NCBI GenBank assembly: GCA_002897695.1
Contig: BDTG01000029.1
Span: 1 to 19,030 of the forward strand
Origin: a bacterium BMS3Abin14
Lineage (GTDB): Bacteria > BMS3Abin14
Direction of reading: 5' to 3'
Length of the DNA: 19,030 nucleotides
Each line of letters opens with the position of its first letter. Position 1 is the first letter of the stretch. The position numbers and the translations under genes were made by a program. This document shows, piece by piece, positions 2,922 through 18,818 of this stretch. The notes beneath the pieces are model-generated. The model did no database searches. It saw only the letters and a list, made by a program, of their open reading frames with translations, and had not been told where the DNA came from.

Positions 2922-2987
2922 ATGTCAGCCAACTTGATCGAAACATATAAGCCGATTCTGGGGCAAACCCTAGGGTCGCCCATTTAA
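2922..2987 (+). CDS. Possible truncated start of a downstream gene (21 codons)
   Basis: Ten bases after the DUF2779 stop, a purine-rich AAGG precedes an ATG opening a 21-codon frame (MSANLIETYKPILGQ and a few more residues) ended by TAA. The position and spacing look like the start of a co-transcribed gene cut short. I do not recognise the family, and chance is also possible. Confidence 0.2.
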   Translation: MSANLIETYKPILGQTLGSPI

Positions 2988-3018
2988 AAGGCACCTGTCA
3001 AGGCACAAAAAAAATTAT

Positions 3019-3042
3019 AGCAGGTTTTTTCTCCTGCTTTTC
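3019..3042 (+). terminator. Weak rho-independent terminator candidate
   Basis: A short hairpin, AGCAGG (3019-3024) and CCTGCT (3033-3038) around a T-rich loop, is followed by TTTT. The stem is only 6 bp, so this is a modest candidate for ending transcription from the DUF2779 unit. Confidence 0.35.
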
Positions 3043-3412
3043 ATTCCTGATCACAGATCTCTCGTTGCGCCCTTGATTTCTATTTATCAGGTGTCAGCCT
3101 CAGCTGCATCAGTCACCCATCAGGATCAAGGCCATCTCATCAGCCCCTGTCACATTCCGTGACCCAGAAAACCTTCGGTTCCGTACCGTGTCCATATGTA
3201 TTGTTCAGATCTAATGGTTATTAACCAGCCCCGCGTCGGTTCACGGCACAGGCAGCAAGAACCTGATATCAGTTATGTATTGGCGGGAACGGTTCCCAAT
3301 CAGTTCTCGTGGTTTTTAGCCAACCCCACATATTTCACTTCCCCATCCCTTCCGGTTTCCTCTGTGTAAAACTGAGGCCAAAGCAGAGAAATACAGGTAA
3401 TGGTATTTGACC

Positions 3413-3463: not shown

Positions 3464-3775
3464 ATGAGTCCATCAGTACAGGAAAAACTAAAGGAACTTG
3501 AGGATCTGTGTGAGAGGTTCAGCGTGAAACAGCTGGACATCTTCGGTTCAGCGGCCGATGACACGGCCATCCTCCCGAACGAAAGTGACATCGACTTTCT
3601 TGTGGAATTTCTTCCCCTGAAGGAAAATCAGCACGCCGATGCCTATTTTGGCCTTCTCTTCGCTCTTGAGGGTCTGTTCGGAAGATCTATCGACCTGGTC
3701 ATGATCCAGGCCATCAGCAATCCTTACTTTCGGGATTCGGTGGAGCGGTCAAGAAAGTTGCTTTATGCGGCTTGA
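3464..3775 (+). CDS. MNT-domain nucleotidyltransferase antitoxin
   Basis: This 103-residue minimal nucleotidyltransferase has the family signature FGSA (G28, S29) followed by SDIDFLV (D42, D44) and a third acid in SIDLV (D77). In HEPN/MNT toxin-antitoxin systems (MntA/HepT type) the MNT partner neutralises the HEPN RNase, in characterised cases by transferring AMP to the toxin. The ATG at 3464 has a good ribosome-binding sequence and the length is normal. The stop overlaps the start of the HEPN gene by 11 bases, the usual co-translated arrangement. All catalytic residues appear present, so the antitoxin looks intact although its toxin partner is broken. Confidence 0.85.
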   Translation: MSPSVQEKLKELEDLCERFSVKQLDIFGSAADDTAILPNESDIDFLVEFLPLKENQHADAYFGLLFALEGLFGRSIDLVMIQAISNPYFRDSVERSRKLLYAA

Positions 3776-3997
3776 GGTTAAGAAGCACCTTGAGGATATT
3801 CGTCGCGCCGGCGAACTCATTGCGGAGTTCATTGCTGATAAATCCTTTGAAGACTATTCCAGTGCCCCTCTTGTCCGTTCAGCGGTAGAAAGGCAAACGG
3901 TTATGACATGATCGACCACCGCGTGGTCTGGGATGTCCTCACTAATCACCTCCCGAAACTTATTCAGGAAGTGCAATCTCTATTAAAGGAAAGTTAG
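3765..3997 (+). pseudogene. HEPN (DUF86/HepT-type) toxin, internally deleted and frameshifted
   Basis: The frame from ATG 3765 reads like the N-terminus of a DUF86 HEPN protein (MRLEVKKHLEDIRRAGELI to LVRSAVERQ) and then stops at 3909-3911. From 3899, one frame over, the matching C-terminus continues (GYDMIDHRVVWDVL to the TAG at 3995-3997). Intact family members have roughly 35-45 residues between VERQ and HGYD, including the catalytic R-x(4-6)-H motif. Here that segment is missing and the frame is shifted, so an active HEPN RNase cannot be made. Both gene ends are well preserved, suggesting a single recent deletion with its junction near 3894-3899. What the two half-frames resemble is from memory of the family; the frame change itself is seen directly. 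Confidence 0.85.
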
Positions 3998-4245
3998 AAT
4001 TCTTTTTGCATCCTGCGCCTGGATCGGTTGATGTCTGCCGATTTTTGCAACTCCCTGATCCTCTTCCGTCGGGGAACTGATGGGGGTCAGGGGATGAATT
4101 GTGGTGTGCCTGACAAAACAAGTTGGAAATACCACAATTCACCCCTTGACCCCATTTAACTCCCAGAGATAAGGAGTCTACATGGGACGGGTTGTATATC
4201 CTTCAACCAGCGAATATGATAATATTCGTGCAGGCGGAGGATGTC
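3998..4245. other. Intergenic region between the two MNT/HEPN loci
   Basis: No gene is supported here. The main content is the long inverted repeat at 4083-4153, followed by the leader of the second MNT gene with a GGAGG ribosome-binding sequence at 4236-4240. Confidence 0.5.
4083..4153. repeat. Long REP/MITE-like inverted repeat
   Basis: The left arm (4083-4105, starting GGGGTCAGGGGATGAATTG) and right arm (4131-4153, ending CACCCCTTGACCCC) are near-perfect complements over about 23 bases, with a 25-base loop. The shape and the GGGGTCA tips resemble REP-type palindromes mobilised by Y1 (RAYT) transposases. No transposase is present in the window. It could also act as a transcription or mRNA-stability barrier between the two toxin-antitoxin loci. 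Confidence 0.7.
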
Positions 4246-4539
4246 ATGAAGAGAAGAGATATCGTACTTGAAAAACTTAAAGACAATGCTGGCGAACTGC
4301 AGCGATTTCACGTTTCCGCTCTGTCCCTTTTCGGTTCCGTTGTTCGGGGAGAGGAGGGCCCCGGCAGCGATGTCGATCTCCTCGTAGAGTTTAACGAACC
4401 CGTCGGAATGTTTACCTTTATACGCCTGAAGAACCATCTGGAAAAACTCCTCGGTGCCAAAGTAGACCTGGTGACGCCTGAGGCCCTTAAGGAAAGGCTC
4501 AGGGACAGGATCCTGAAGGAGGCGATTCGTGCCGCATAG
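4246..4539 (+). CDS. Second MNT-domain nucleotidyltransferase antitoxin
   Basis: This 97-residue protein carries the MNT motif: LFGSVVRG (G30, S31), GSDVDLLVEF (D42, D44) and KVDLV (D74). The ATG at 4246 is preferred over an upstream in-frame start at 4192 because GGAGG sits five bases ahead of it and the family begins near MKRRDIVLEKL. It differs strongly in sequence from the MNT at 3464-3775, so the two loci are separate acquisitions rather than a tandem duplication. The expected role is antitoxin to a HEPN RNase, probably by nucleotidylation. The stop codon overlaps the GTG start of the HEPN remnant by 11 bases, the same geometry as in the first pair. Confidence 0.85.
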   Translation: MKRRDIVLEKLKDNAGELQRFHVSALSLFGSVVRGEEGPGSDVDLLVEFNEPVGMFTFIRLKNHLEKLLGAKVDLVTPEALKERLRDRILKEAIRAA

Positions 4540-4633
4540 GGATTGGCTGGTTCCCATCCTCTGGAAAACAGTTCAGGACGACATTCCTTCGCTCATTCCC
4601 CTTCTGCAGGAGATCCTCAAGGACAACCGATAA
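4529..4633 (+). pseudogene. Second HEPN (DUF86) toxin collapsed to a 34-codon in-frame remnant
   Basis: The frame opens with GTG and reads VPHRDW, matching the usual DUF86 start MPHRDW, then passes directly into the family's C-terminal end (ILWKTVQDDIPSLIPLL and on to the TAA at 4631-4633). About 70-80 residues of the normal protein, including the R-x(4-6)-H RNase motif, are absent. Unlike the first HEPN gene, the deletion keeps the reading frame, so a 34-residue peptide containing the C-terminal helix could still be translated by coupling to the MNT gene. It is most simply a dead toxin; a residual MNT-binding microprotein is possible but unproven. Confidence 0.8.
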
Positions 4634-4921
4634 CCCACTTGGTTGTCAAAGGACAGGCATTTTCTTCCCCCTTCGCTCCATGGAGCTATGGCGGACCAGC
4701 AGGTTTCTAACAGCGATTGGTTGGCTCCAGAGGAAATGTTCGTGCCCGGCAAACCCTTGGGGTCGGAGCTCATTTTCTCAGGTTTTAAACATTTTGTGCC
4801 TGATGTTCACACAATTCTTCATTCATTTGGAGGATACGTCGCGGCAAATAAAAGGTATTGCTTGAAAAATGCCCATCCTCATACGAAAAATGTATGAAAC
4901 CGGGGATAAAGGAAATCTGAT
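4634..4921. other. Intergenic region, no supported gene
   Basis: An 84-codon plus-strand frame here (starting from TTG at 4643) has no recognisable motifs and no good ribosome-binding sequence, so it is not called. A small hairpin, TCATAC (4879-4884) with GTATGA (4892-4897), lies just upstream of the DUF4236 gene. Confidence 0.4.
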
Positions 4922-5962
4922 ATGGCTTTCCGTTTCTGGAGAAGGGTAAAGATCGCACCGGGGGTGACCCTGAACCTGAGCAAAGCGGGTGGGTCCTTCT
5001 CGTTAGGGCCGCGCGGTGCGAAGTTCACCGTCGGGTCCCGCGGCAAGCGGGCCACAATGGGTATTCCGGGAACGGGACTCTTTTACACCTCGACTTTTAC
5101 AGGCGGGAGGTCAGGCGGCGGGAAAAACGCATCCTGCTTCGCTCCGGCCGTCCCAAAGGTCAGCGCGGAAGACCGCCTGGACCTTGGCTTCTTCAAACGG
5201 TTCATCACACCGGACGACGAGGAAGCCCTGGTGGACGGTTGCCGGGAGTTGGTTCTGGGGGATGAAGACAAGGCGCTTGAGCACCTCGAACAGGCGGCCC
5301 ACCTTGCCGATGGAGCGTACCTCGCTGGCTTTATGGCCCTCAGGAAAGAACGGCTGGAGGAAGCCGCGAACTGCCTGGCCGCGGCCGCCGAAAAGCATAG
5401 CCGCTTAGGCTATTACTTCGCCAGATACGGCATCTCCGCCGTCATGAGCCTACCCATCACCGACGAGATATCCGCTCATGTGGGCCCGGATCTCCGTGGT
5501 GTGCTGCTGGGGCTGGTGGAGGTCTACCAGCGTCAGGAGCGCCGGCAGGATGCGTTGACATGTCTGGAGAAGCTGCAGCGGCTCGAACCCGACGACGTGG
5601 TAGTGAAGTTGTCTCTTGCAGAGCTGCTGCTGGACGCTCATCCGGGCGACAAGAAGGTCTGTCAGAAGGTTGTGCGGTTGGTTGAGGGCATTGAGAACGA
5701 GACGCCGATCCATGCCGCGCTATTGCTGTACAAGGCCAGGGCCCTGCGCGGGCTCGGCCTGCCGGATGCGGCCCGGGAGACCTTGACGATAGCCCTGCGC
5801 CGAAAGAAAGATCGTTCCGATGAGCTCCTCCGGGCGCTCAGGTACGAACGGGCCCTCGTATACGAGGAGATGGGTCAGCGCAAACGGGCGCGAAAGGAAT
5901 TCGAGAAGCTTTACGCCGATGATCCCGACTATGGGGACGTGGCAGCCCGGTTGGGGCTGTAG
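4922..5962 (+). CDS. DUF4236 domain plus TPR-repeat protein
   Basis: Residues 1-58 form a DUF4236 domain, recognised by FRFWRRVKIAPGVTLNLSK, the glycine-rich strand pattern and GIPGTGLFY. A glycine-rich linker (about 61-68) leads to a helical region from about residue 95 to the end with alanine/leucine-rich, TPR-like units (for example near 200-225 and 265-345). DUF4236 proteins have no firmly known function; TPR repeats usually bind proteins. The TPR part suggests an adaptor, but the partner is unknown. No signal peptide or membrane segment is evident, so it is probably cytoplasmic. An AAGGAA ribosome-binding sequence precedes the ATG. The gene is GC-rich, unlike the toxin-antitoxin loci to its left, and its last 34 bases overlap the end of a truncated minus-strand gene. 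Confidence 0.75.
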   Translation: MAFRFWRRVKIAPGVTLNLSKAGGSFSLGPRGAKFTVGSRGKRATMGIPGTGLFYTSTFTGGRSGGGKNASCFAPAVPKVSAEDRLDLGFFKRFITPDDEEALVDGCRELVLGDEDKALEHLEQAAHLADGAYLAGFMALRKERLEEAANCLAAAAEKHSRLGYYFARYGISAVMSLPITDEISAHVGPDLRGVLLGLVEVYQRQERRQDALTCLEKLQRLEPDDVVVKLSLAELLLDAHPGDKKVCQKVVRLVEGIENETPIHAALLLYKARALRGLGLPDAARETLTIALRRKKDRSDELLRALRYERALVYEEMGQRKRARKEFEKLYADDPDYGDVAARLGL

Positions 5963-6150
5963 CGCATACCCCCGGTTTTTCCTGGGGCCCGGATCATTTC
6001 TACGGCAGCGATATCAGCTTCGAGGAGAACTACCGGAAAGGAAAAGCCGGCCGGATAATAAATCTTCCGCAGGTAAACCACGATTGACGCCTTGATGTAA
6101 CCGAAGGCGATCCCCCAGACAACCAGCCGGAACAGCCTTCTTTTGAACAT
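5929..6150 (-). pseudogene. N-terminal fragment of a membrane-protein gene, 3'-truncated
   Basis: From the ATG at 6150 (GGGGAG about eight bases upstream) the frame reads MFKRRLFRLVVWGIAFGYIK and continues through VVYLRKIYYPAGFSFPVVLLE. This resembles the start of an uncharacterised deltaproteobacterial membrane protein with an N-terminal hydrophobic helix. After VEMIR (near 5995) the sequence turns into proline/glycine-rich residues that do not look like the rest of such a protein, and the frame runs into the antisense of the DUF4236 gene before stopping at 5929. The 3' part of the gene has therefore probably been replaced. It lies 40 bases downstream of guaC on the same strand and may be co-transcribed. 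Family identity is from memory and moderate in confidence. Confidence 0.5.
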
Positions 6151-6190
6151 CTTCACTCTCCCCGCCAAGGCAATGTGTGAGGCCGTGGAT

Positions 6191-7228
6191 TCAGCTGAAC
6201 ATCTGGTTCTCCTGCTCCATGACCCTGATAAAGGTCGTCCGCTTGGTCAGTTCCTTTAACGCCAGTGCCCCTACATACGTACAGGCGGAGCGCATCCCCC
6301 CCAGTATGTCCTTTACGGTATCCTCGATGAAGCCCTTGTAAGGGACCTGGACATTTTTCCCCTCAGACGAGCGGTAATCAGCAACGCCCCCTGAGTGCTT
6401 CTCCATGGCAATTGACGAACTCATGCCGTAGAACATTTTGTATGTTTTGCCGTCACGTTCCAGCATCTCGCCTCCGCACTCGTCGTGCCCGGCGAACATG
6501 CCCCCTACCATGACAAAGTCAGCGCCGCCACCAAAAGCCTTGGCGACATCTCCTGCACAGGTGCAGCCTCCGTCTGATATAATCCTTCCTCCCAAACCGT
6601 GCGCAGCGTCTGCACACTCGATCACCGCCGAAAGCTGAGGATAGCCAACCCCGGCCTTAATGCGAGTGGTGCACACAGAGCCAGGCCCGATCCCAACCTT
6701 GATGATGTCAGCGCCCGACAGAAGAAGCTCCTCCACCATCTCGCCGGAGACTACATTACCTGATACTATTGTCTTTTCGGGGAAATTTTCCCGCACTTTG
6801 CTGACGAACTCAACGAACGATTCCGCGTATCCGTTGGCCACATCTATACAAATAAATTCCAGTCCGGGGTGATCACCTATTATCCGCTTGAGTTTCTCCA
6901 TGTCCTTTTCCGACTTGCCGATGCTTACCATAATCTTGCCGTAGATATCCTGGTCTTTGCCTGACAGGAATCGGGTCCAGGCCTCGGCGCCGTAGTGTTT
7001 GTGGATGGCCGTCATCATACCGAACCGGCCCAGGACTTCAGCTACCTCGAAGGTCCCAATGGTATCCATGTTGGTCGCGATCACCGGAACCCCTGTCCAC
7101 TCTTTCTTGCTGTGTAAGAAGGTGTAGGTCCTGTTCAGTTCCACATCAATCCGGCTTTTCAGGGTCGATCTCTTGGGCCTTATCAACACGTCTTTGAATC
7201 CCAGCTTCAAATCTGTTTCCAGGCGCAT
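6191..7228 (-). CDS. guaC: GMP reductase
   Basis: GuaC reduces GMP to IMP with NADPH and release of ammonia, returning guanine nucleotides to the adenine branch of purine salvage. The 345-residue length matches the E. coli-type enzyme (347). Visible features of the IMPDH/GMPR barrel are an N-terminal [22 protein letters not shown] near residue 52, the catalytic loop [11 protein letters not shown] with C186, the phosphate-binding [24 protein letters not shown] region split over residues 217-240, and the flap [15 protein letters not shown] near 276-290. No CBS domains are inserted, which favours GMP reductase over IMP dehydrogenase. The ATG has a strong GGAGGA ribosome-binding sequence. It is transcribed alone or with the truncated membrane-protein gene after it. 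Confidence 0.93.
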
Positions 7229-7642
7229 AGTTCTTCCTCCTTATCGCTTGCGTCGTGCCCCAAGTATTAACGTGGCACCTGACATGTCCTTTTAACCTCC
7301 TGCGTCGGAACGCAGTTTCAAAACTCCCTGTTTCTCATATATAGCTTACCAGATTGTCAGTTATCGAGCTTGGCAAGCGACATTTCGTCGAATGTTTCGG
7401 GCATCACAGGAGGTCCCCAGCGATGCTTTCCCCGCGATTGGACACGTTTTCAACACACAATCCTTGCAATGGCAGGGTATTCCTGATCAGCTTGGAGACA
7501 AGCATGGGTTCCTCCCCGGATACAAAGGTTAGCTCTCACCACCTAAGTAACCGAAAGAACTCATGCTTTCAATTGTCAAAGACCAGATTCATGCACTCAT
7601 TTGTGCGACGAGCCAAAAATATTTATCGTAAGTGTATTCTGT
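7229..7642. other. Intergenic region between guaC and the RHH/MazF pair
   Basis: No gene is supported. On the minus strand it holds the guaC leader, with a small hairpin (CTGCGT 7300-7305, ACGCAG 7310-7315) and an AT-rich TATATA near 7336-7343 that could be a -10 element without a convincing -35. A 117-codon plus-strand frame (7354-7707) has no recognisable features and ends inside the next gene. Confidence 0.4.
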
Positions 7643-7671
7643 TTGACACGACATGGAGTATGGATTATTAT
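7643..7671 (+). promoter_or_regulatory. Sigma-70-type promoter of RHH/MazF operon
   Basis: A consensus -35, TTGACA (7643-7648), is followed after exactly 17 bases by TATTAT (7666-7671). The antitoxin ATG lies 32 bases beyond the -10, with AGGGGG (7692-7697) as its ribosome-binding sequence. The -10 lies inside a palindromic operator candidate. Confidence 0.75.
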
Positions 7672-7685
7672 AGCTATAACAATCC
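7662..7685. promoter_or_regulatory. Palindromic operator over the -10 box
   Basis: The arms GGATTATTATAG (7662-7673) and CTATAACAATCC (7674-7685) are complementary at all but one position, giving a 24-bp near-perfect palindrome that covers the -10 element. Ribbon-helix-helix antitoxins commonly repress their own operon by binding such sites, so autoregulation by the gene at 7704 is the natural reading. Confidence 0.65.
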
Positions 7686-7703
7686 ACATTTAGGGGGTTT
7701 AAT

Positions 7704-7937
7704 ATGAGAACCGTGCAAATGACTCTTGATGATGAACTTGTCAAAGCGGTTGATCGGGTTTCGAAGCAACTCCGCACAAGTCGTTCCGCTTTCACAAGAA
7801 GTGCGCTTCGTGAGGCGCTTGCCCGTCACAAACTTGAGCAACTGGAGCGAGAGCACCGTCAGGGCTACGAACGGCATCCGGTTGCTGCCGATGAGGTTTC
7901 GGTCTGGGAAACCGAGCAAGCCTGGGGTGATGAATGA
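7704..7937 (+). CDS. Ribbon-helix-helix antitoxin of a MazEF-like pair
   Basis: This 77-residue protein begins with a ribbon-helix-helix (CopG/Arc-type) DNA-binding domain: the MRTVQMTLDDELVKAVD strand and first helix, then TSRSAFTRSALREAL as the second helix (about residues 1-43). The charged C-terminal tail (about 44-77, rich in E, R and W) is the usual toxin-binding arm. It should neutralise the MazF-type RNase encoded next and repress their shared promoter. Its final codons overlap the toxin start in an ATGA junction. The ATG at 7704 is set by AGGGGG at 7692-7697. Confidence 0.85.
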   Translation: MRTVQMTLDDELVKAVDRVSKQLRTSRSAFTRSALREALARHKLEQLEREHRQGYERHPVAADEVSVWETEQAWGDE

Positions 7938-8245
7938 GACACGGCGAAATACGCTGGTACAAGTTCGGACGACCAGATAAAAAAAGGCCCGTACTTATTC
8001 TTACGCGAAATTCAGTGTTGGAATATCTTGGTGAAGTAACCGTCGCTCCCATTACAAGTACGGTCCGCAATATACCGTCTGAGGTGTTTCTGTCGAAAGC
8101 CGACGGCATGCCCCGGGATTGCGCTGTCAACTGTGACCACCTGCAGACTGTTTTGAAGGGGAAAATCGGATCACTGATCACATCTTTGCCGTCTCGAAAA
8201 ATGGTTGATGTTGGATGGGCAATCCGCTTTGCCCTCGATTTTTGA
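7934..8245 (+). CDS. MazF/PemK-family endoribonuclease toxin
   Basis: This 103-residue protein has the MazF/PemK beta-barrel layout: RHGEIRWYKF at the start, the KKRPVLILTRN strand with R18, VTVAPITSTVR (T41/S42), a GMPRDCAVNCDHLQTV segment and the closing helix VDVGWAIRFALDF. MazF enzymes cleave single-stranded mRNA at short sequences, stopping translation. R18 and the T/S after PI correspond to the usual active-site positions, so it appears complete. It overlaps the RHH antitoxin by four bases and shares its promoter. It is the only toxin in this window without an obvious lesion. Confidence 0.85.
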   Translation: MRHGEIRWYKFGRPDKKRPVLILTRNSVLEYLGEVTVAPITSTVRNIPSEVFLSKADGMPRDCAVNCDHLQTVLKGKIGSLITSLPSRKMVDVGWAIRFALDF

Positions 8246-8440
8246 TGACTTCGCAAAAAGCCATCATGGGAATCCTGGGGTCAAACCCCGATTCCGAGGT
8301 TTCGAGGGCCCTGATGATGCCACCAGGATAGTCGGGGTCCCTTCAGTTGACGTCCCTCTCCGTCCTTACCTCTGATATTGCAAAGCGAGGATAGGGGATA
8401 TTTTGTGGTTGAAACCATCAGGTGGTTATAATTCCACCAT
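8246..8440. other. Intergenic region after MazF with hairpin
   Basis: A hairpin lies just past the MazF stop: GGAAT (8269-8273) and GGGGT (8277-8281) pair with ACCCC (8285-8289) and ATTCC (8291-8295). It has no T-tract, so it may be an mRNA stabiliser rather than a classical terminator. Further right, TTGTGG (8403-8408) and TATAAT (8427-8432), 18 bases apart, form a possible promoter that would give a nearly leaderless transcript of the ATPase remnant. Confidence 0.4.
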
Positions 8441-8656
8441 ATGATAGCCAGGAATATAACAGACGGAATCCTTGAAAGCCTTTCGGACAGCCCGGTGGTC
8501 CTGCTCGTCGGGGCAAGGCAGGTCGCCAAAGTTGTTTTTAAACGACACCGGCCTTGCGGCGTACCTGATGGGATTGAACAGGGCCGGCTTGAGCTCGAAA
8601 AGTCCATCAACGTTATCCATTATAAACAGATCATGATGGTGCTGATTTTCGGATGA
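8441..8656 (+). pseudogene. AAA ATPase (DUF4143-type) gene collapsed by internal deletion
   Basis: The frame starts MIARNITDGILESLSDSPVV and reaches LLVGARQVAK, the beginning of a P-loop that would normally read GARQVGKT/S. From 8523 a different frame gives SPKLFLNDTGLAAYLMGLN (to about 8585), the start of the DUF4143 C-terminal domain. Intact members have about 200 or more residues between these points. Here the Walker A glycine/lysine-threonine, Walker B and the rest of the AAA core are missing, and the two ends meet out of frame near 8522-8530. The DUF4143 half also ends early. No ribosome-binding sequence precedes the ATG. These ATPases are common accessory genes of uncertain function; this copy is dead. 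Confidence 0.75.
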
Positions 8657-8678
8657 AAGCTTGCTTTCATCGCAAGCT
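8652..8678. repeat. Overlapping, mutually exclusive hairpins
   Basis: GATGAAAGC (8652-8660) and GCTTTCATC (8663-8671) form a perfect 9-bp stem. AGCTTGC (8658-8664) and GCAAGCT (8672-8678) form an alternative perfect 7-bp stem with loop TTTCATC. The two cannot form together. No coding or regulatory role can be assigned. Confidence 0.5.
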
Positions 8679-8775
8679 GAAATATCTCAACAGTTCTGGT
8701 GCGGGGATGCTCCTTCCTCTGCGAAACCCTTCTTTAAAACCCCGCTTTTCCCCTCTGGACACTGGATTCTGAAAA
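8679..8775. other. Short gene-free stretch
   Basis: Nothing recognisable was seen between the hairpins and the end of the PIN toxin remnant on the minus strand. Confidence 0.35.
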
Positions 8776-8898
8776 TCAAACATCCCCTATCCATTTCAGA
8801 TGCTTGGCGAAGGGTGTCCCGCGGACGGTATCGTAAAGCTCCCTCCCGGCGGTAACCATGCGGCATTCCTGCCGGACGGCAAGGGCGAGGCTCAAACC
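8776..8898 (-). pseudogene. C-terminal stub of a VapC-like PIN toxin
   Basis: Immediately after the antitoxin stop, a minus-strand frame without its own start reads SLALAVRQECRMVTAGRELY and ends DTVRGTPFAKHLKWIGDV before TGA at 8776-8778. This matches the last 35-40 residues of VapC/FitB-type PIN RNases, where the fourth acidic site is normally followed by LALA, then V-T-A/G and a final W-x-D. The first two thirds, with the conserved N-terminal D, the E and most of the catalytic acids, are gone, so no active RNase can be made. The remnant overlaps the antitoxin stop, indicating that the deletion removed the toxin start as well. Confidence 0.75.
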
Positions 8899-9122
8899 CT
8901 GCCCGATTTCTCGGCAAGCTTCGCGCTGTCCGTGTGTTCCCGGCCTCCGAGCATCCTCCGTATCCTCGCGGAGAGGATAACTGTATCCCGGGACTCCGAC
9001 CGGGCGGCATTCTCGATGATGTTCTTTATCTCGGACTGCATGGACCGGCCGTTTCGCCGCGCCCGCGCCTTGAGGTGTTTGATGGTTTCATCATCGAGAT
9101 CCCGCACAAGAATGTTGGGCAT
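8892..9122 (-). CDS. FitA/VapB-like ribbon-helix-helix antitoxin
   Basis: This 76-residue protein begins MPNILVRDLDDETIKHLKAR with the second helix NGRSMQSEIKNIIENA, the typical FitA/Arc-type ribbon-helix-helix domain found in antitoxins of PIN RNases. The C-terminal part (about 45-76) is the usual toxin-wrapping tail. The ATG at 9122 has GGGAGG ahead of it. Its partner PIN gene, expected directly downstream on the minus strand, survives only as a stub, so the antitoxin is now solitary. It may still repress its own promoter or counter related toxins elsewhere. A 13-bp inverted repeat lies just upstream. Confidence 0.8.
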   Translation of the reverse strand: MPNILVRDLDDETIKHLKARARRNGRSMQSEIKNIIENAARSESRDTVILSARIRRMLGGREHTDSAKLAEKSGRV

Positions 9123-9140
9123 GGCAACCTCCCTCTCTAA

Positions 9141-9178
9141 TCAGTTTCTGCTTTCGGGGACCTGGAAGCAGAAACTGA
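9141..9178. promoter_or_regulatory. 13-bp perfect inverted repeat upstream of the antitoxin
   Basis: TCAGTTTCTGCTT (9141-9153) and AAGCAGAAACTGA (9166-9178) are perfect complements around a 12-base spacer. It lies about 20 bases before the antitoxin start and has no T-tract. It is a candidate operator or leader hairpin; a role as fdhD terminator is less likely. Confidence 0.5.
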
Positions 9179-9233
9179 GGTTTGGGGTTTGGGGTTTAAC
9201 TTCAAACTCTCAAACTCTCAAACTTCAAACTTG
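9179..9233. repeat. Low-complexity GTTTGGG / CAAACTCT repeat tract
   Basis: Two to three units of GTTTGGG (period 7) are followed by four CAAACT-type units (period 7-8). The two halves are partly complementary and could fold back on each other. It sits directly after the fdhD stop and may serve as a transcription end or simply be slipped-strand repeat. Confidence 0.5.
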
Positions 9234-9236
9234 CCC

Positions 9237-12079
<2,843 letters not shown>

Positions 12080-13342
12080 TCACAGCGCGACTGCCTTGAG
12101 GAGCAGGAAGATGAGGACGGTCAAAACGGCGGTGGCGGGAATGGTAATGAGCCAGGAGTTGATGATATTACGGATCACCCGAAGGTTGATGGCCGCCATC
12201 CCCCTGGCCATGCCCACACCGATGATGGATCCCACCAGAGTATGGCTGGTGGAAACCGGCAGACCGAGTTTGGAACAGGCCAGAACAGTAGTGGCGGTGG
12301 CAAACTCCGCCGAGAAACCGCGGGAGGGTGTAATAGAGGTGATCTTCCTGCCCACCGTCTCGATGACCTTGTATCCCCATGTTCCCAGGCCGATGACGAT
12401 CCCAACGCCGCCCAGGGCAAGGATCCACATCGGTACACCCACTTGCATTTCGAGATTGCCGGTTTTAAATACGGACACGATAGCGGCGAATGGCCCGATG
12501 GCGTTGGCGACATCATTTGCACCATGGGCGAACGCCACGTAACAGGCAGTCCCAATCTGGAGGTATCTGAATATTCCTTCAACCTGATCGAATGCCGCCT
12601 TCCGTTTCCTTGGTCTGACGGCATAATTTCTCTCCAGGATGAACTTCATGACCAGGTAGGCCAGAACGCCGACGACAATGGCGATCATGAGGGCTTCCCT
12701 GAAAGGAATATCCAGGTGCAGGTTTTTCAGCCCTTTAAAGAGCATGGATAAGACAAGCACAACGGCCACCGGGAAGATGAGGATAGGTACGACTCTCCTC
12801 GCGGCCCGGACGGGGTCCCAGGCCGCCAGAACGGTTCTCTTGATGAACGAGAAGGTAATAAACGCGATTACCCCCCCAACCAACGGGGAGATAACCCAAC
12901 TCGCCACGACTGACCCCAGCCTTCCCCAGTTTATCGCAGAAATCCCGCCGACAAGAAGGCCGAAACCCACAATGGACCCCACGATGGAGTGGGTGGTGGA
13001 AACGGGAAGACCCAACGCTGTGGACAGGTTCAGCCAGATACCCGACGCCAGCAGGGCCGCCAGCATGCCGAGGACGAACAAGTCCGCATTGCCCTTGAAA
13101 ATGGCGGGAGAAACGATTCCCTTGCGAACGGTATCGGTGACGTGCCCCCCCACGAGGAAAGCCCCGGCGAATTCGAATACCCCTGCAAGTAAAACAGCCT
13201 GCTTAAGGCTGACGGCGTGGGAACCCACGGACGTTCCCATGGCGTTGGCCACATCGTTGGCGCCGATGTTCCATGCCATATAGAAGCAGACCGCAAGGCT
13301 GACCCAGAAAACCCAGATTCCAAGCTCAAGCACGAATAACAC
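12080..13342 (-). CDS. pit: PiT-family low-affinity phosphate transporter
   Basis: This 420-residue inner-membrane protein belongs to the PiT (PitA) family, which imports metal-phosphate complexes driven by the proton gradient. Two internally repeated PiT signatures are present: GANDVANAMGTSVG (about 27-40) with GLPVSTTHSIVGS, and HGANDVANAIGP (about 274-285) with GLPVSTSHTLVGS, reflecting the inverted-repeat topology. About ten hydrophobic segments are visible. The DUF47 gene 31 bases upstream encodes the usual PhoU-like partner. PiT-type carriers elsewhere also admit oxyanion look-alikes such as arsenate and tellurite, which may matter in a selenium operon, though that is inference. The start ATG at 13342 fits the first membrane helix. 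Confidence 0.92.
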   Translation of the reverse strand: MLFVLELGIWVFWVSLAVCFYMAWNIGANDVANAMGTSVGSHAVSLKQAVLLAGVFEFAGAFLVGGHVTDTVRKGIVSPAIFKGNADLFVLGMLAALLASGIWLNLSTALGLPVSTTHSIVGSIVGFGLLVGGISAINWGRLGSVVASWVISPLVGGVIAFITFSFIKRTVLAAWDPVRAARRVVPILIFPVAVVLVLSMLFKGLKNLHLDIPFREALMIAIVVGVLAYLVMKFILERNYAVRPRKRKAAFDQVEGIFRYLQIGTACYVAFAHGANDVANAIGPFAAIVSVFKTGNLEMQVGVPMWILALGGVGIVIGLGTWGYKVIETVGRKITSITPSRGFSAEFATATTVLACSKLGLPVSTSHTLVGSIIGVGMARGMAAINLRVIRNIINSWLITIPATAVLTVLIFLLLKAVAL

Positions 13343-13373
13343 CCCTACTCAATGGTGGCGCATCCCGATGGAT

Positions 13374-14048
13374 TTATTTGGAAATGAAAAGGCGTATACG
13401 ATTGCCAGTCTTCTCAGCGTTGTTCGCAATATCCCCCAACGCCCCCAGAACTTTCATCCAGAGAACAATATTCAAGGCCCCGAGCTCATCCTCCATGGCG
13501 AGAAGTTTTTTGAGCAGGTCATGCTGCATCCGATCGGCCTTGTGCTCCTCACGGCCCAGCGCATCGATCATCTCGGTGACCTTTCCGGCCTCGGCTCCGC
13601 CGAATGAAGCCTCAACCAGTTCGTCCAGTTCGCTGCTGATCCTGGCAAAATGCTCCACGGTTATCATGACCTGCCCGATGAAGCCCCACATCTCATCCCT
13701 GATTGCTGTTGGAAACGGGAGCTTGCGCATGTTCAAAAGGACCATGACGTCCTCGGCTACATCGCTGATCTTGTCCTGAAAGGACAGGATATCCACAATG
13801 TCCTTTCGTGCCACAGGTGTAAAAATGGTCTTGGGAAGATCGCCCCGGATCTCGTTTTTTATGATATCGGCCTCATATTCCGCATGCCCGATCTTTTCCG
13901 ACAGCTCATCGAACGTTTTTTCGTCGTCCTCCTCAAAGGCCTTGAAGAGATCCGGAATAAGCCTGGCAGTATCCATCACCTTTGTCATGTGATCCTGCAG
14001 CGGGCCGAATGGGGATTTGGCAAAAAGTTCGAAAATGGTCCTTCTCAT
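13374..14048 (-). CDS. DUF47 (PhoU-like) regulator of the Pit transporter
   Basis: This 224-residue, all-helical protein belongs to the DUF47/TIGR00153 family, distantly related to PhoU. Features include the N-terminal FELFAKSPFGPLQDHM, an acidic EEDDEKTFDELSEKI helix, HAEYEADIIKNEIR and ILSFQDKISDVAEDV, the last resembling the metal-binding E/DxxxD pattern of PhoU. Members are almost always encoded next to a pit gene and are thought to control its activity. Here pit begins 31 bases after its stop. It follows moeA with a 16-base gap and has an AGGAAAAT ribosome-binding sequence. It is probably cytoplasmic and peripheral to the transporter. Confidence 0.88.
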   Translation of the reverse strand: MRRTIFELFAKSPFGPLQDHMTKVMDTARLIPDLFKAFEEDDEKTFDELSEKIGHAEYEADIIKNEIRGDLPKTIFTPVARKDIVDILSFQDKISDVAEDVMVLLNMRKLPFPTAIRDEMWGFIGQVMITVEHFARISSELDELVEASFGGAEAGKVTEMIDALGREEHKADRMQHDLLKKLLAMEDELGALNIVLWMKVLGALGDIANNAEKTGNRIRLFISK

Positions 14049-14064
14049 GGATTTTCCTCCCGCA

Positions 14065-15300
14065 TCAAACGCCCCCTTTCAGGAGCGCATCGTCACTGTT
14101 CAGCAGGTACACATCGACCTGTTGACCGGCATCGACACCGTCGGTGTCCTCGGGCAGAACAATAATCCCGTTAGCAAGGGACATTGACCGCAGTATCCCG
14201 GAACCCTGCGCGCCTGTTGTTCTCGCATAGAAGATTCCATCCCTTCTCTCTACTATGCCTCGAATGAAATTTCTACGACCTTTTTTCTTTCTGATATCCT
14301 GCTCCATTGTTGCCTTCACTGTCGGCCTGAAGAGCCTGGTGTGGCCCATCATCTTCCTGATGGACGGACGGGCATAGAGCTCAAAGGAAAGGGCTGCGGA
14401 TACGGGGTTGCCCGGGAGAGCGAATATGGGTTTCCAGCCCATGACGCCGAAGGTCATGGGCTTGCCCGGCTTCTGGGCGACCCTGCTAAAGAGCACTCTG
14501 GCGCCGATCTCCTCGAGTACCTCCTTCAGGTAATCGTAATCCCCCATGGATACTCCGCCTGATGTGACTACCACATCTGAAGTAAACCCTTCCCGGATCA
14601 TTTCGGCCAGTTGGACAGGATCATCCCGGGAGATGCCCAGCAGGCGCGGAATGGCGCCGCATTCCCTGACAAGGCCCATAAGAGAATAGGAGTTGCTGCT
14701 GAATATCTGGGCCTCACGGGGGACCTCTCCCAGGTTAACCACTTCGTCCCCGGTGGCGATAATAGCCACCGTGGGCCTTCGGTAGACGGTCAGCTGAGCG
14801 ATGCCCTGCGAGGCGACAAGGCCCATGTCGACCGGACCTATGCATCTTCCCGCTTCCAGGATATCCGACCCTGCGGCAATGTCCTCTCCTGCGGCACGGA
14901 TATTTCCCCCCACCCTCGGAGGGTTACACAGAACAAGACAACCGTCCTTAAAGGATGTGTCTTCAACCCGGACCACCGTATCCACGCCATCCGGGATCGG
15001 GGCTCCAGTCATGATTTTGACAGCCCTGTTGGAATTCACGGCAGCCCCAGGCCAGTCACCGGCCCTGATTGTCCGGGACACGGGGATAAAGACGGGCGCA
15101 CTTTTTGAGGCACCGGCGGCCTGGACGGCGGTCAGCGCAAAACCGTCCATGGCCGAGTTGTTCGTGGGGGGAACGTCCCGGGAGGCATGGACGGACCGTG
15201 CGAGCACCCGGCCCAGACAGTCGGTCAGGGATACGACCTCCACCCCTCCGACATGGCTGTTTTCCAGAATAATCCTCCGCGCCTCCGATACCTGAATCAT
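14065..15300 (-). CDS. moeA: Molybdopterin molybdenumtransferase MoeA
   Basis: MoeA inserts molybdate into adenylated molybdopterin, the last common step in making molybdenum cofactor. The 411-residue protein shows the family's four-domain order: NNSAMDGFAL (about 47-56), GAPIPDGVDTVVRVED, TGDEV in the MPT-binding domain, TSGGVSMGDYDYLKE, KPGKPMTFG and FALPGNPVSA, followed by a C-terminal beta domain (about 330-411). It overlaps the SelB stop by four bases (ATGA), so it is translationally coupled to selB. In this operon it most likely supports the same molybdoenzyme that needs selenocysteine, with formate dehydrogenase the obvious candidate given fdhD downstream. Confidence 0.93.
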   Translation of the reverse strand: MIQVSEARRIILENSHVGGVEVVSLTDCLGRVLARSVHASRDVPPTNNSAMDGFALTAVQAAGASKSAPVFIPVSRTIRAGDWPGAAVNSNRAVKIMTGAPIPDGVDTVVRVEDTSFKDGCLVLCNPPRVGGNIRAAGEDIAAGSDILEAGRCIGPVDMGLVASQGIAQLTVYRRPTVAIIATGDEVVNLGEVPREAQIFSSNSYSLMGLVRECGAIPRLLGISRDDPVQLAEMIREGFTSDVVVTSGGVSMGDYDYLKEVLEEIGARVLFSRVAQKPGKPMTFGVMGWKPIFALPGNPVSAALSFELYARPSIRKMMGHTRLFRPTVKATMEQDIRKKKGRRNFIRGIVERRDGIFYARTTGAQGSGILRSMSLANGIIVLPEDTDGVDAGQQVDVYLLNSDDALLKGGV

Positions 15301-17246
15301 GAGGCAGTCCCTCCCTTCTGTGTGCCGCCTCGCCTGATGCGCACGTCTCCTCTTCTCATGGTTACCTGCATCCTGTCCAGGTATTCAAGGAGCGGTATCA
15401 TCCACTTCCTGCTGGTGCCGGCGATCTCCCGGAACCCTTTCATGGAGAGTTCGGCATTGGAACCGAAGTAACTGTCCACCCGCGCCATGAGGGTGCTGTT
15501 GGCATCGGGATGAACATAGAAATCGTCCTTGACCCTGACCGCCTCTCCCCTTTCGCACATGAGGCCCAGGACGGCCTTCAGATGAGGGGCATCCACACCA
15601 AGATCGGAGGCCAGATCCAGGACGAATGGCGCTGACAGGCCCGCGGCTTCCAGAATTGCTCCGACCCTCTTTGCCAACTTCTGCTGTTCGGGGGTAAACG
15701 CGGCGCTGTGACCCATGAGGAAGACGGTGTTCCCATCCACCCCGATCACATTCTTTTCCGCAAGAGCCGACAGGAGATTCCTGTAGGGCCGGTCGGGAAG
15801 CATTCCGGCTGACTTCATTCTGAGTTCCTCTTTCCCGATGCCCTTTTTAAGAGGATGCGCCCGGTGAAAAACATGGAGAACCTTGACAAGCCGGTCTTTC
15901 AGGCCATCGAAGGACACCGAGGAGTAGGCAAGCGCTCCGGGACCATCGCCGATGAGAACAGCTTTCCCGTCAGCTTCAAGGTCCCGCAACAGCCCTATTG
16001 CCTCAGGTACGGAAACACCCGCCCTGGTCCCGATGACTCCGGCCGTTCCGCCGTAATCACCTGCCTCGTCCAGAAGGGCTTCCATCCTGTTGCCGGGATT
16101 ATCCGTGTGCAAGCGCGCAAGATGGGCGATAACCGTCTTCCGCATGCGCCGGTGCTTCGCCGGAACCGGGTCAAGCACAACCCCTCCGCCGATGGTGGTG
16201 ATTGGAGAATAGCTGCGAAGGACAAATCTGTCGCCAGGCTGAGCCACCGCAGACGCTTCCAGACGAATCTGTGCCACCGCCTCATGGCCCGGGTCGAGGG
16301 ATTCATCCTCCAGAAGGACAACCCGGGCCATGATTTCGGACGTATAAAGGTGGAGACGCACCCGGGTGCGATTTTTCAGCGGCCGCGGCGCGGAGGATAA
16401 AAGCCTGATATGGACGTCCAGAAGATAGGTTGGAATAAGGGAACCTGCATGGGCCGCGGTCTCCCCTCGGCGGATCTGTCCTTTTTCAATCCCCTGAAGA
16501 TTCATTGCCGTACGAGTGCCCGCGGAACTCTCCCGGACCTGGTTGCCGTGGACCTGGATGCCCCGGAGCTTTGCTCTCCTGCCCTCGGGAAAGAAGTTCA
16601 CCTCCTCGCCCACTGCTATCCTGCCGGAAATAAGAGTTCCGGTGACCACAGTACCGAACCCCTTCATGGAGAAAACACGATCCACCGGCAGACGGAAAAC
16701 CCCTTCGAGGCTCTTTCCCGGAACGCGCATGGCCGCCTGTTCCATCGCCTTGAGGAGTTCGTCCTTGCCCGTGCCGTCAACGGCTGAGAAGGGGATAATC
16801 GGTGCGTCGCACAGGAAGGTCTCCGCCAGATATTCCCTGACATCTTCGGTTACCATCTCAAGCCAGTCGGCCTCAACCATGTCGATCTTGCTGAGTACCA
16901 CTATCCCGCCCCTCGTCCCAAGAAGTTGGCAGATGTCAAGGTGCTCCCTGGTCTGGGGCATGACGCCTTCATCGGCGGCGACTACAAGGAGAACGAGGTC
17001 AATCCCCGTGGCCCCGGCAACCATGTTCCGTACGAACCGCTCATGCCCGGGAACGTCCACCAGCCCTACCCTTAATCCGGACGGCAGGGTCAGCGGGGCA
17101 AACCCGAGCTCGATGGTAATTCCACGCTCCTTTTCCTCCTTTAGCCGGTCTGTGTTTATCCCGGTAAGAGAACGGACGAGAGCGGTTTTGCCGTGGTCAA
17201 TGTGGCCGGCGGTGCCTATTATGATGTGCGCTCGGGTATCGGTCAT
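15297..17246 (-). CDS. selB: Selenocysteine-specific elongation factor SelB
   Basis: SelB carries selenocysteinyl-tRNA to ribosomes paused at UGA codons marked by a SECIS hairpin. The 649-residue length is typical. The GTPase domain has G1 GHIDHGKT (14-21), the effector region [10 protein letters not shown] (41-50), G3 DVPGHE (64-69) and G4 SKIDM (119-123). Beta-barrel domains follow (about 180-365, including [15 protein letters not shown]), then four winged-helix segments (about 380-649) that bind the SECIS RNA. The gene overlaps selA and moeA by four bases each. Its presence implies at least one UGA-containing selenoprotein gene plus selC and selD elsewhere; none was recognised here. Confidence 0.95.
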
Positions 17247-18661
17247 GTCAGGCCGGAATAGACCGCTCCCCTTATGGACCGTTCCAGGTCGCCCAGTTCC
17301 CTGGGCAACACGGTCCTGAAGTCCAGGCAGACCCGGTCCTCCACGATACGCCCTATTACAGGTGGCTCCTGTTCCCTCAGCCGGGCCTCAAGGTCCTGCG
17401 CGGAAATCCCACCAGGCTCCAGGGCAAGAAGAATGGAGGGTATCTCCTCAAGAGGGAGTGAGCCGCCGCCGACCTTTGATAATGCGGGAAGGAAAGATAC
17501 CCGGACGGGAAGATCCCTGAGACGGGCAGCGAACCGACGGGCCCGGCGGGAAACGGAATCCCTGCTCGCCGAGATCATTTTCAGCGTCGGCAGATTCTTA
17601 ACGGCGGTTTCGGGGTTCAGATAGATTTTCAGGACGGCTTCAAGGGCCGCGAGGGTCATTTTTCCGCATCGAACTGCTCGTTTCATGGGGTTCATCCTAA
17701 TGTGCTGAATTGTGGAAGCGCTCCCGAGGATAACGCCCGACTGAGGCCCCCCAAGCAACTTGTCGCCGCTGAAGGTAACCACATCAGCCCCAGCCTTCAG
17801 GACATCCATCACGGTTGGTTCGTAGTGTGACAGACCCAGAACCCTGACATCCAGGAGGCTGCCGCTGCCCAGATCCACCATAACCTGGATCCCGGTTTCC
17901 TGCCCGAGGGCGACAAGGTCCTCAACACTTGCCTCCTGGGAGAAACCGACGATACTGTAGTTGCTGGTGTGGACCTTCAGCAGAAGCGCGGTGTTCTCGT
18001 CGACAGCCCTGCGATAGTCATCAATACGTGTGCGGTTGGTTGTCCCCACCTCGAGAAGGCAGGCTCCGGCGGCGGACATGACGTCGGGTATGCGGAAAGA
18101 ACCGCCGATCTCAACCAGTTCACCCCGGGAAACAACCACTCCGCGTCCGGCGCCGAGGGTATTGAGAGCCAGCATAACGGCCGCCGCGTTGTTGTTGACC
18201 ACCGTTGCCGCCGGGGCGCCGGTGATCTCCCTCAAAAGTCCTTCAATGAGATCGTCTCTGGAGCCGCGTCTGCCCTCCTTCAGGCTGTATTCGAGGTTGG
18301 AGTATCCCGATGCGGCCAGCTGCATCTGCCGGACAGCCTCATCGGGCAAGGGGCTGCGGCCCAGATTGGTGTGGATGATCACTCCTGTGGCATTGATGAC
18401 CCTGCGCAGCCGGGGAATGTTCTTAATCACCGCCCGTCTCTTCGCACCCTCGGAGACGAGGTCGATGGAAAGCAGTCCCGGCTGGGTGATCTCCCCCGAG
18501 AGGACCCTTTCCCTTAGATAACTAATCTCCTCTCTTACCGCGGCCTTTACGATACGCGGGGCAATGGCCGGTGAGAGGCGCAAAAGAGCGGTGTGAGCCA
18601 GGACCTGGTCCACCCTGGGAAGGTGGGGAAGAAGGTTTTTTCTATTGTTTTCCAAAGACAT
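17243..18661 (-). CDS. selA: L-seryl-tRNA(Sec) selenium transferase SelA
   Basis: SelA converts seryl-tRNA(Sec) to selenocysteinyl-tRNA using selenophosphate and pyridoxal phosphate. The 472-residue protein has the conserved N-terminal tRNA-binding helices ([11 protein letters not shown] at 11-21), [16 protein letters not shown] (90-105), the PLP-site segment [11 protein letters not shown] (154-164), [17 protein letters not shown] (179-195), [10 protein letters not shown] (231-240) and the PLP lysine K301 in [14 protein letters not shown]. It is the first gene of the minus-strand cluster; AAGGA about seven bases upstream serves as ribosome-binding sequence. Its stop overlaps the selB start by four bases. 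Confidence 0.95.
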
Positions 18662-18704
18662 CGACAGTCCTTTTCGAAGAAATCATTCAACAACCTGCGA
18701 ATCG

Positions 18705-18733
18705 ATAGTCCAATACGGGCCACAACTTGTCAA
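18705..18733 (-). promoter_or_regulatory. Candidate promoter of the selA-to-fdhD cluster
   Basis: On the minus strand TTGACA (18728-18733) is followed after 17 bases by GACTAT (18705-18710). The -35 is perfect and the -10 is weak (3 of 6). It lies about 45 bases upstream of the selA ATG. Confidence 0.45.
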
Positions 18734-18818
18734 GAACAAGCCAACCACACGGTAACGAAGTTTAAAATCGGAACCCTATGGTTAGATTTACTTTGCGCAA
18801 CTTTGTCTGTCCTGCCTG

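What the first reader, a model, noticed from the sequence alone, without database searches (positions are those of the whole stretch)
3464..9122. Serial toxin decay: antitoxins intact, toxin genes gutted
Three independent toxin-antitoxin loci in about 5.7 kb (two MNT/HEPN pairs and one FitA/VapC pair) retain complete antitoxins while the toxin gene has lost its catalytic core; a nearby AAA-DUF4143 gene shows the same kind of deletion. In both HEPN genes and the ATPase both gene ends survive, indicating discrete deletions rather than slow point-mutation decay. Retained antitoxins could protect against homologous incoming toxins (anti-addiction) or act as repressors. Alternatively the deletions could be assembly artefacts, which needs excluding because so many occur close together.
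Basis: partly seen in the sequence, partly recalled or inferred. Interest (0 to 1): 0.75.

Follow-up and report, generated by a model that had tools for sequence, protein, structure and literature searches.

The report
Recently broken toxin genes beside intact antitoxins
Three small self-poisoning (toxin-antitoxin) gene pairs in this bacterium have recently lost most of the toxin gene while the antidote gene is still whole, which is the expected first stage of ordinary decay because the antidote cannot safely be lost first.

Summary
Relatives in the same bacterial family carry full-length versions of all four genes, and at FitAB and the ATPase the full-length version lies at the same chromosomal place in a same-genus sibling (G001). 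The losses are about 109 bp (HEPN1), 240 bp (HEPN2), 300 bp (FitB) and 746 bp (ATPase). The two junctions that can be resolved against the sibling both lie on perfect 7-bp direct repeats, the mark of slippage or short-homology joining. The next 9.85 kb of core genes is collinear with the sibling, with no indel above 16 bp. One correction: the ATPase lost its C-terminus in a second, more complex event. Antitoxin-intact/toxin-dead loci recur: three more in this genome, one in the sibling and two in a third genome; no reverse case was seen. The anti-addiction or repressor reading is not supported. The dead fragments still show purifying selection (0 amino-acid changes, 8 silent) while FitA has 4 and 6, so the deletions are too young for antitoxin retention to mean anything. 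No intact HepT or PIN toxin was detected in the genome. Best explanation: ordinary, recent, toxin-first decay of dispensable loci. Read-level artefact could not be excluded.

The parts
3464..3775 (+). MNT1: MntA-like nucleotidyltransferase antitoxin, intact (103 aa)
   Evidence: PF01909 E 4.6e-10; 103-aa relative in G005:C134
3765..3895 (+). HEPN1 (HepT-like) toxin, N-terminal remnant (about 44 codons)
   Evidence: aligns with G005:C134 up to the junction; PF01934 with the pieces joined, E 6.7e-8
3895..3899 (+). HEPN1 deletion junction (about 109 bp lost, RX4H motif lost, frameshift)
   Evidence: gap in alignment with G005:C134
3899..3997 (+). HEPN1 C-terminal remnant (32 codons, GYDMIDH...LLKES), now out of frame
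4246..4539 (+). MNT2: MntA-like antitoxin, intact (97 aa, GSX10DXD present)
   Evidence: PF01909 E 8.1e-16; G004 homologues
4529..4633 (+). HEPN2 remnant: in-frame 34-aa ORF with a junction (about 240 bp lost) at 4552/4553
   Evidence: alignments with G004:C37 and G004:C12 full-length 114-aa HEPNs
8441..8525 (+). AAA-DUF4143 ATPase, N-terminal remnant (ends in CAGGTCG repeat)
   Evidence: G001:C44 intact 426-aa gene at the same place
8519..8594 (+). AAA-DUF4143 ATPase, internal remnant (about codons 275-300); 746 bp lost on the 7-bp repeat CAGGTCG
8595..8752 (.). Second rearrangement: replaces about 1371 bp of the sibling (ATPase C-terminus and a 259-aa ORF); contains a dispersed repeat at 8652-8724
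8776..8895 (-). FitB (PIN/VapC) remnant: in-frame 39-aa C-terminal ORF using FitB's own TTG start
   Evidence: 300 bp in-frame deletion on TCAAACC against G001 139-aa FitB
8892..9122 (-). FitA RHH antitoxin, intact including its stop codon (76 aa)
   Evidence: PF22513 E 9.6e-16; 96% identical to G001 FitA
7704..8245 (+). Intact RHH/MazF-like (PemK) pair in the same interval: a toxin that has not decayed
   Evidence: PF01402 and PF02452

Best explanation
These are three ordinary toxin-antitoxin loci (two HepT/MntA, one FitAB) caught at the first stage of decay. Deletions of 0.1-0.75 kb removed the toxin cores and, by the same kind of event, a neighbouring dispensable ATPase; at the two resolvable junctions they lie between 7-bp direct repeats (shown). 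The antitoxins are still whole for two reasons, both inferred: a cell that loses the antitoxin first is poisoned, so toxin-first is the only viable order; and the deletions are too recent for the now useless antitoxins to have decayed. Later stages are visible elsewhere in the genome: a FitB stump without FitA, a VapC without its N-terminus or an evident VapB, and an MNT2 paralogue cut to its first codons with no HEPN. The deletion mechanism (replication slippage or short-homology end joining) is inferred from the repeats.
For: Full-length homologues of all four genes occur in relatives, collinear in G001 for FitAB and the ATPase. Two of two junctions resolvable against the sibling lie on perfect 7-bp repeats (0.04% expected). 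Dead fragments of FitB and the ATPase carry 0 amino-acid and 8 silent changes against G001, while FitA carries 4 and 6, so the losses are young. Core genes next door (8889-18734) are collinear with no indel above 16 bp. Same state elsewhere in the genome: C39 MNT with frameshifted HEPN; C46 AbrB-like antitoxin with frameshifted PIN; C46 HigA with gutted HigB. Same state in relatives: G001:C29 VapB/VapC frameshift, G005:C134 HEPN frameshift, G005:C124 HEPN truncated. Nine toxin-first cases, no antitoxin-first case. Later stages. Non-toxin decay: the ATPase, a partial DUF4143 at C8, and a 480-bp in-gene loss in the sibling's TPR gene.
Against: Exact repeats for HEPN1 and HEPN2 cannot be resolved because the homologues are only 71-76% identical and not collinear. 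G005's HEPN1 is itself frameshifted. The nine cases are few and were found in islands chosen by toxin and antitoxin hits, so the sign test (0.59^9 = 0.009) is indicative only. Several of the other cases rest on indels of about 1 nt that could be sequencing errors. Some partners in other contigs were named by reading the sequence, not by a model.
Confidence: 0.8

Rival explanations
1. The antitoxins are kept by selection as anti-addiction (immunity) factors or as repressors after loss of the toxin.
For: Antitoxin reading frames, the MNT2 catalytic motif and the FitA DNA-binding domain are intact. FitA omega 0.17 is like housekeeping genes next door (0.05-0.18). Orphan antitoxins acting as anti-addiction modules are discussed in the literature (PMC7354431, PMC7192599).
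Against: Toxin and ATPase stumps are at least as conserved as FitA (0 N/8 S against 4 N/6 S), so conservation reflects recency. No intact HepT or PIN toxin was detected in the genome. A second FitA is already lost at C10 and an MNT2 paralogue is truncated at C34.
Confidence: 0.08
2. The deletions are artefacts of assembly or amplification (chimeric reads), and the true genome has intact toxin genes.
For: Several events fall close together. The stumps still look selected, which intact genes would also give. Short repeats also seed amplification chimeras. Reads were not available.
Against: Assemblers cannot join on 7 bp without spanning reads. The assembly is near complete (100%, 49 contigs). 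Nearly 10 kb of adjacent core genes has no such event. Antitoxin-only loci occur on other contigs and in independently assembled relatives.
Confidence: 0.1
3. The in-frame stumps (34-aa HEPN2 and 39-aa FitB) are maintained miniproteins that bind the antitoxin and tune autoregulation.
For: Two of the three toxin stumps are in frame and keep the overlapping start with the antitoxin gene. No stop has appeared in either.
Against: One deletion in three is in frame by chance; two or more of three has probability 0.26. HEPN1 and the ATPase are frameshifted. The absence of non-silent changes is also expected from recency, and the ATPase stumps show it too.
Confidence: 0.02

Closest known systems
Decay of the ccdO157 system in E. 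coli (Mine et al. 2009; cited in PMC2654758 and PMC10305079, original not held)
   Same: A chromosomal toxin-antitoxin system undergoing degeneration within a species
   Different: Here several loci of unrelated families in one genome, hit by deletions of 0.1-0.3 kb; compared between species, not within one
Orphan antitoxins of the Klebsiella pneumoniae complex (PMC7192599)
   Same: Antitoxin kept without a functional toxin, often in the original context; a median of nine per strain
   Different: Here the toxin stumps and, for FitAB, the junction are resolved against a collinear sibling
HepT/MntA (type VII) toxin-antitoxin system (PMC7641770)
   Same: MNT2 carries GSX10DXD; full-length partners in relatives carry RX4HXY
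   Different: In the window the RX4H core is deleted; MNT1 has GSX12DXD, as in its G005 relative

Membership tests
HepT/MntA toxin-antitoxin system | Antitoxin with NTP_transf_2 fold and GSX10DXD | tested here: met
   MNT2 met in full; MNT1 matches PF01909 but has GSX12DXD, shared with its G005 relative
HepT/MntA toxin-antitoxin system | Toxin with RX4HXY motif | tested here: not met
   Deleted in HEPN1 and HEPN2 of the window; present in G004 and G005 relatives (RNIVVHEY, RNILIHGY). The loci are degenerate members, not working systems
FitAB / VapBC (PIN) toxin-antitoxin system | FitA-like RHH antitoxin | tested here: met
   PF22513 E 9.6e-16
FitAB / VapBC (PIN) toxin-antitoxin system | PIN-domain toxin with acidic active site | tested here: not met
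   Only the last 39 codons remain; full 139-aa gene in G001
Orphan antitoxin from a decayed locus | Antitoxin intact, toxin remnant in original position, intact pair in relatives | tested here: met
   for HEPN1 the closest relative (G005) is itself frameshifted
Anti-addiction module | Antitoxin neutralises a homologous incoming toxin | not testable with these tools
   Needs expression assays; no intact homologous toxin was found in this genome

The most novel reading that the evidence does not exclude
This lineage is purging RNase toxins (HepT and PIN) genome-wide by short-repeat deletions while selection keeps the antitoxins as a stock of antidotes against incoming toxins. It would then be a natural series of stages in which order, speed and selective value of antitoxin retention could be measured.
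Probability: 0.07. Interest if true: 0.55.

Novelty: new member of a known kind. Interest (0 to 1): 0.27.

Why it matters
It gives a clean set of recent, resolvable toxin losses with the antitoxin left behind, with an intact sibling for comparison. That makes the toxin-first rule countable, and it is a warning: an intact orphan antitoxin is not evidence of function unless the age of the loss is known. Otherwise it is ordinary decay of accessory genes.

Tried and rejected
The genome-contig scan with MNT1 found only distant relatives and did not name the organism. I first took the C10 RHH antitoxin for an orphan; the ParE search showed an intact partner, and it was dropped. The C39 Phd-like ORF has no recognisable toxin but was not counted. 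dN/dS of MNT1 and MNT2 against G005 and G004 is near saturation and says nothing about the time after the loss. Rfam found nothing in the window. The Mine et al. 2009 paper is not held.

Full report
What is there. The window is the whole of contig C29 of a 2.28-Mb genome. MNT1, MNT2 and FitA are complete antitoxins by Pfam. Each lies beside a toxin remnant. A MazF-like pair between them (7704-8245) is intact.

Full-length relatives. The same-genus sibling G001 is collinear with the window from 8382 to 18734. There FitB is a 139-aa PIN protein and the ATPase a 426-aa protein. FitB is also full length, or nearly so, in G002, G003 and two contigs of G010. HEPN2 has two full-length 114-aa homologues in G004. 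HEPN1's best homologue in G005 keeps the middle part but has its own frameshift near the N-terminus. The short forms in the window are therefore not the family norm.

The deletions. Against G001, FitB lost 300 bp between two TCAAACC repeats. The loss is in frame and keeps FitA's stop codon and FitB's overlapping TTG start. The ATPase lost 746 bp between two CAGGTCG repeats, with a frameshift. About 0.04% of random deletions in this stretch would show 7 bp or more of microhomology. HEPN1 lost about 109 bp (frameshift) and HEPN2 240 bp (in frame) against more distant homologues; exact repeats cannot be read there. The ATPase C-terminus was lost in a separate, complex rearrangement (8595-8752), so its two surviving pieces are not its two ends.

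How old. Between G000 and G001 the FitB stump has 4 silent and 0 non-silent changes, and the two ATPase stumps 4 and 0. FitA has 6 silent and 4 non-silent. Dead fragments as conserved as the retained antitoxin mean that most of the divergence built up while the genes were alive. FitA's omega (0.17) and those of neighbouring core genes (0.05-0.18) therefore carry no information on selection after the loss. The same pattern would arise if the deletions were artefacts, so read mapping remains the decisive test.

How general. Among the islands I read, the genome has three more loci with an intact antitoxin and a dead toxin: C39 MNT with a frameshifted HEPN, C46 AbrB-like with a frameshifted PIN, and C46 HigA with a gutted HigB. 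The sibling has one (C29 VapB/VapC) and G005 has two (C134, C124). I saw no intact toxin whose antitoxin was dead. Intact pairs also occur, for example ParE with an antitoxin at C10 and C13, HigBA at C33, and several in C39. No intact HepT (PF01934) or PIN (PF01850) toxin was detected in the genome. Later stages exist: a lone FitB C-terminus at C10, a VapC without its start at C39, and an MNT2 paralogue cut to its first codons at C34. Nine against none is unlikely if hits fell by gene length (0.009), but the sample is small and chosen by toxin and antitoxin hits.

Not toxin-specific. The ATPase is decayed in the same way, a partial DUF4143 lies at C8, and the sibling has lost 480 bp inside a TPR gene. 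By contrast 9.85 kb of core genes (FdhD, LigA, PitA, MoeA, SelB, SelA by reading) shows no indel above 16 bp. Deletions are tolerated where genes are dispensable.

Literature. Orphan antitoxins are common (a median of nine per Klebsiella strain, PMC7192599) and are ascribed to degraded loci, anti-addiction or regulation (PMC7354431). Degeneration of ccdO157 in E. coli is the classic case (cited in PMC2654758). HepT/MntA motifs are from PMC7641770.

Verdict. A real and neatly resolvable set of recent toxin losses; the mechanism and the antitoxin-last order are as expected from established knowledge. The functional reading of the retained antitoxins has no support here.

Noticed in passing
window 2959-3317: A non-coding stretch 79-94% identical to copies in at least four family genomes; in G007 (L037) it lies next to an intact IS110-like transposase ORF, so here it is probably an orphan IS110-type non-coding end beside the MNT1 locus.
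   Followed up: partly
window 4083-4156: REP-like palindrome (GGGGTCAGGGGATGAATTGTGG...CCACAATTCACCCCTTGACCCC) with many copies in G003, G004, G005 and G011; it lies between the two MNT/HEPN loci.
   Followed up: partly
window 4658-4743 and 8652-8724: Two further dispersed repeats with copies on other contigs of this genome and (8652-8724) in the sibling, some with inverted partial copies.
   Followed up: no
L056 (G001:C2) 4205-6362: The sibling's DUF4236-TPR gene has lost 480 bp (in frame) and the gene's first 48 bases occur twice, about 1.5 kb apart.
   Followed up: no
L069 (G000:C39:59000-78500): Toxin-antitoxin island with several intact-looking pairs next to decayed ones; a VapC without its N-terminus is joined head to head with an MNT gene.
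   Followed up: partly
L063 (G000:C10:111376-111514): Second FitB remnant, only the last 46 codons, without FitA: a later stage of the same decay.
   Followed up: yes
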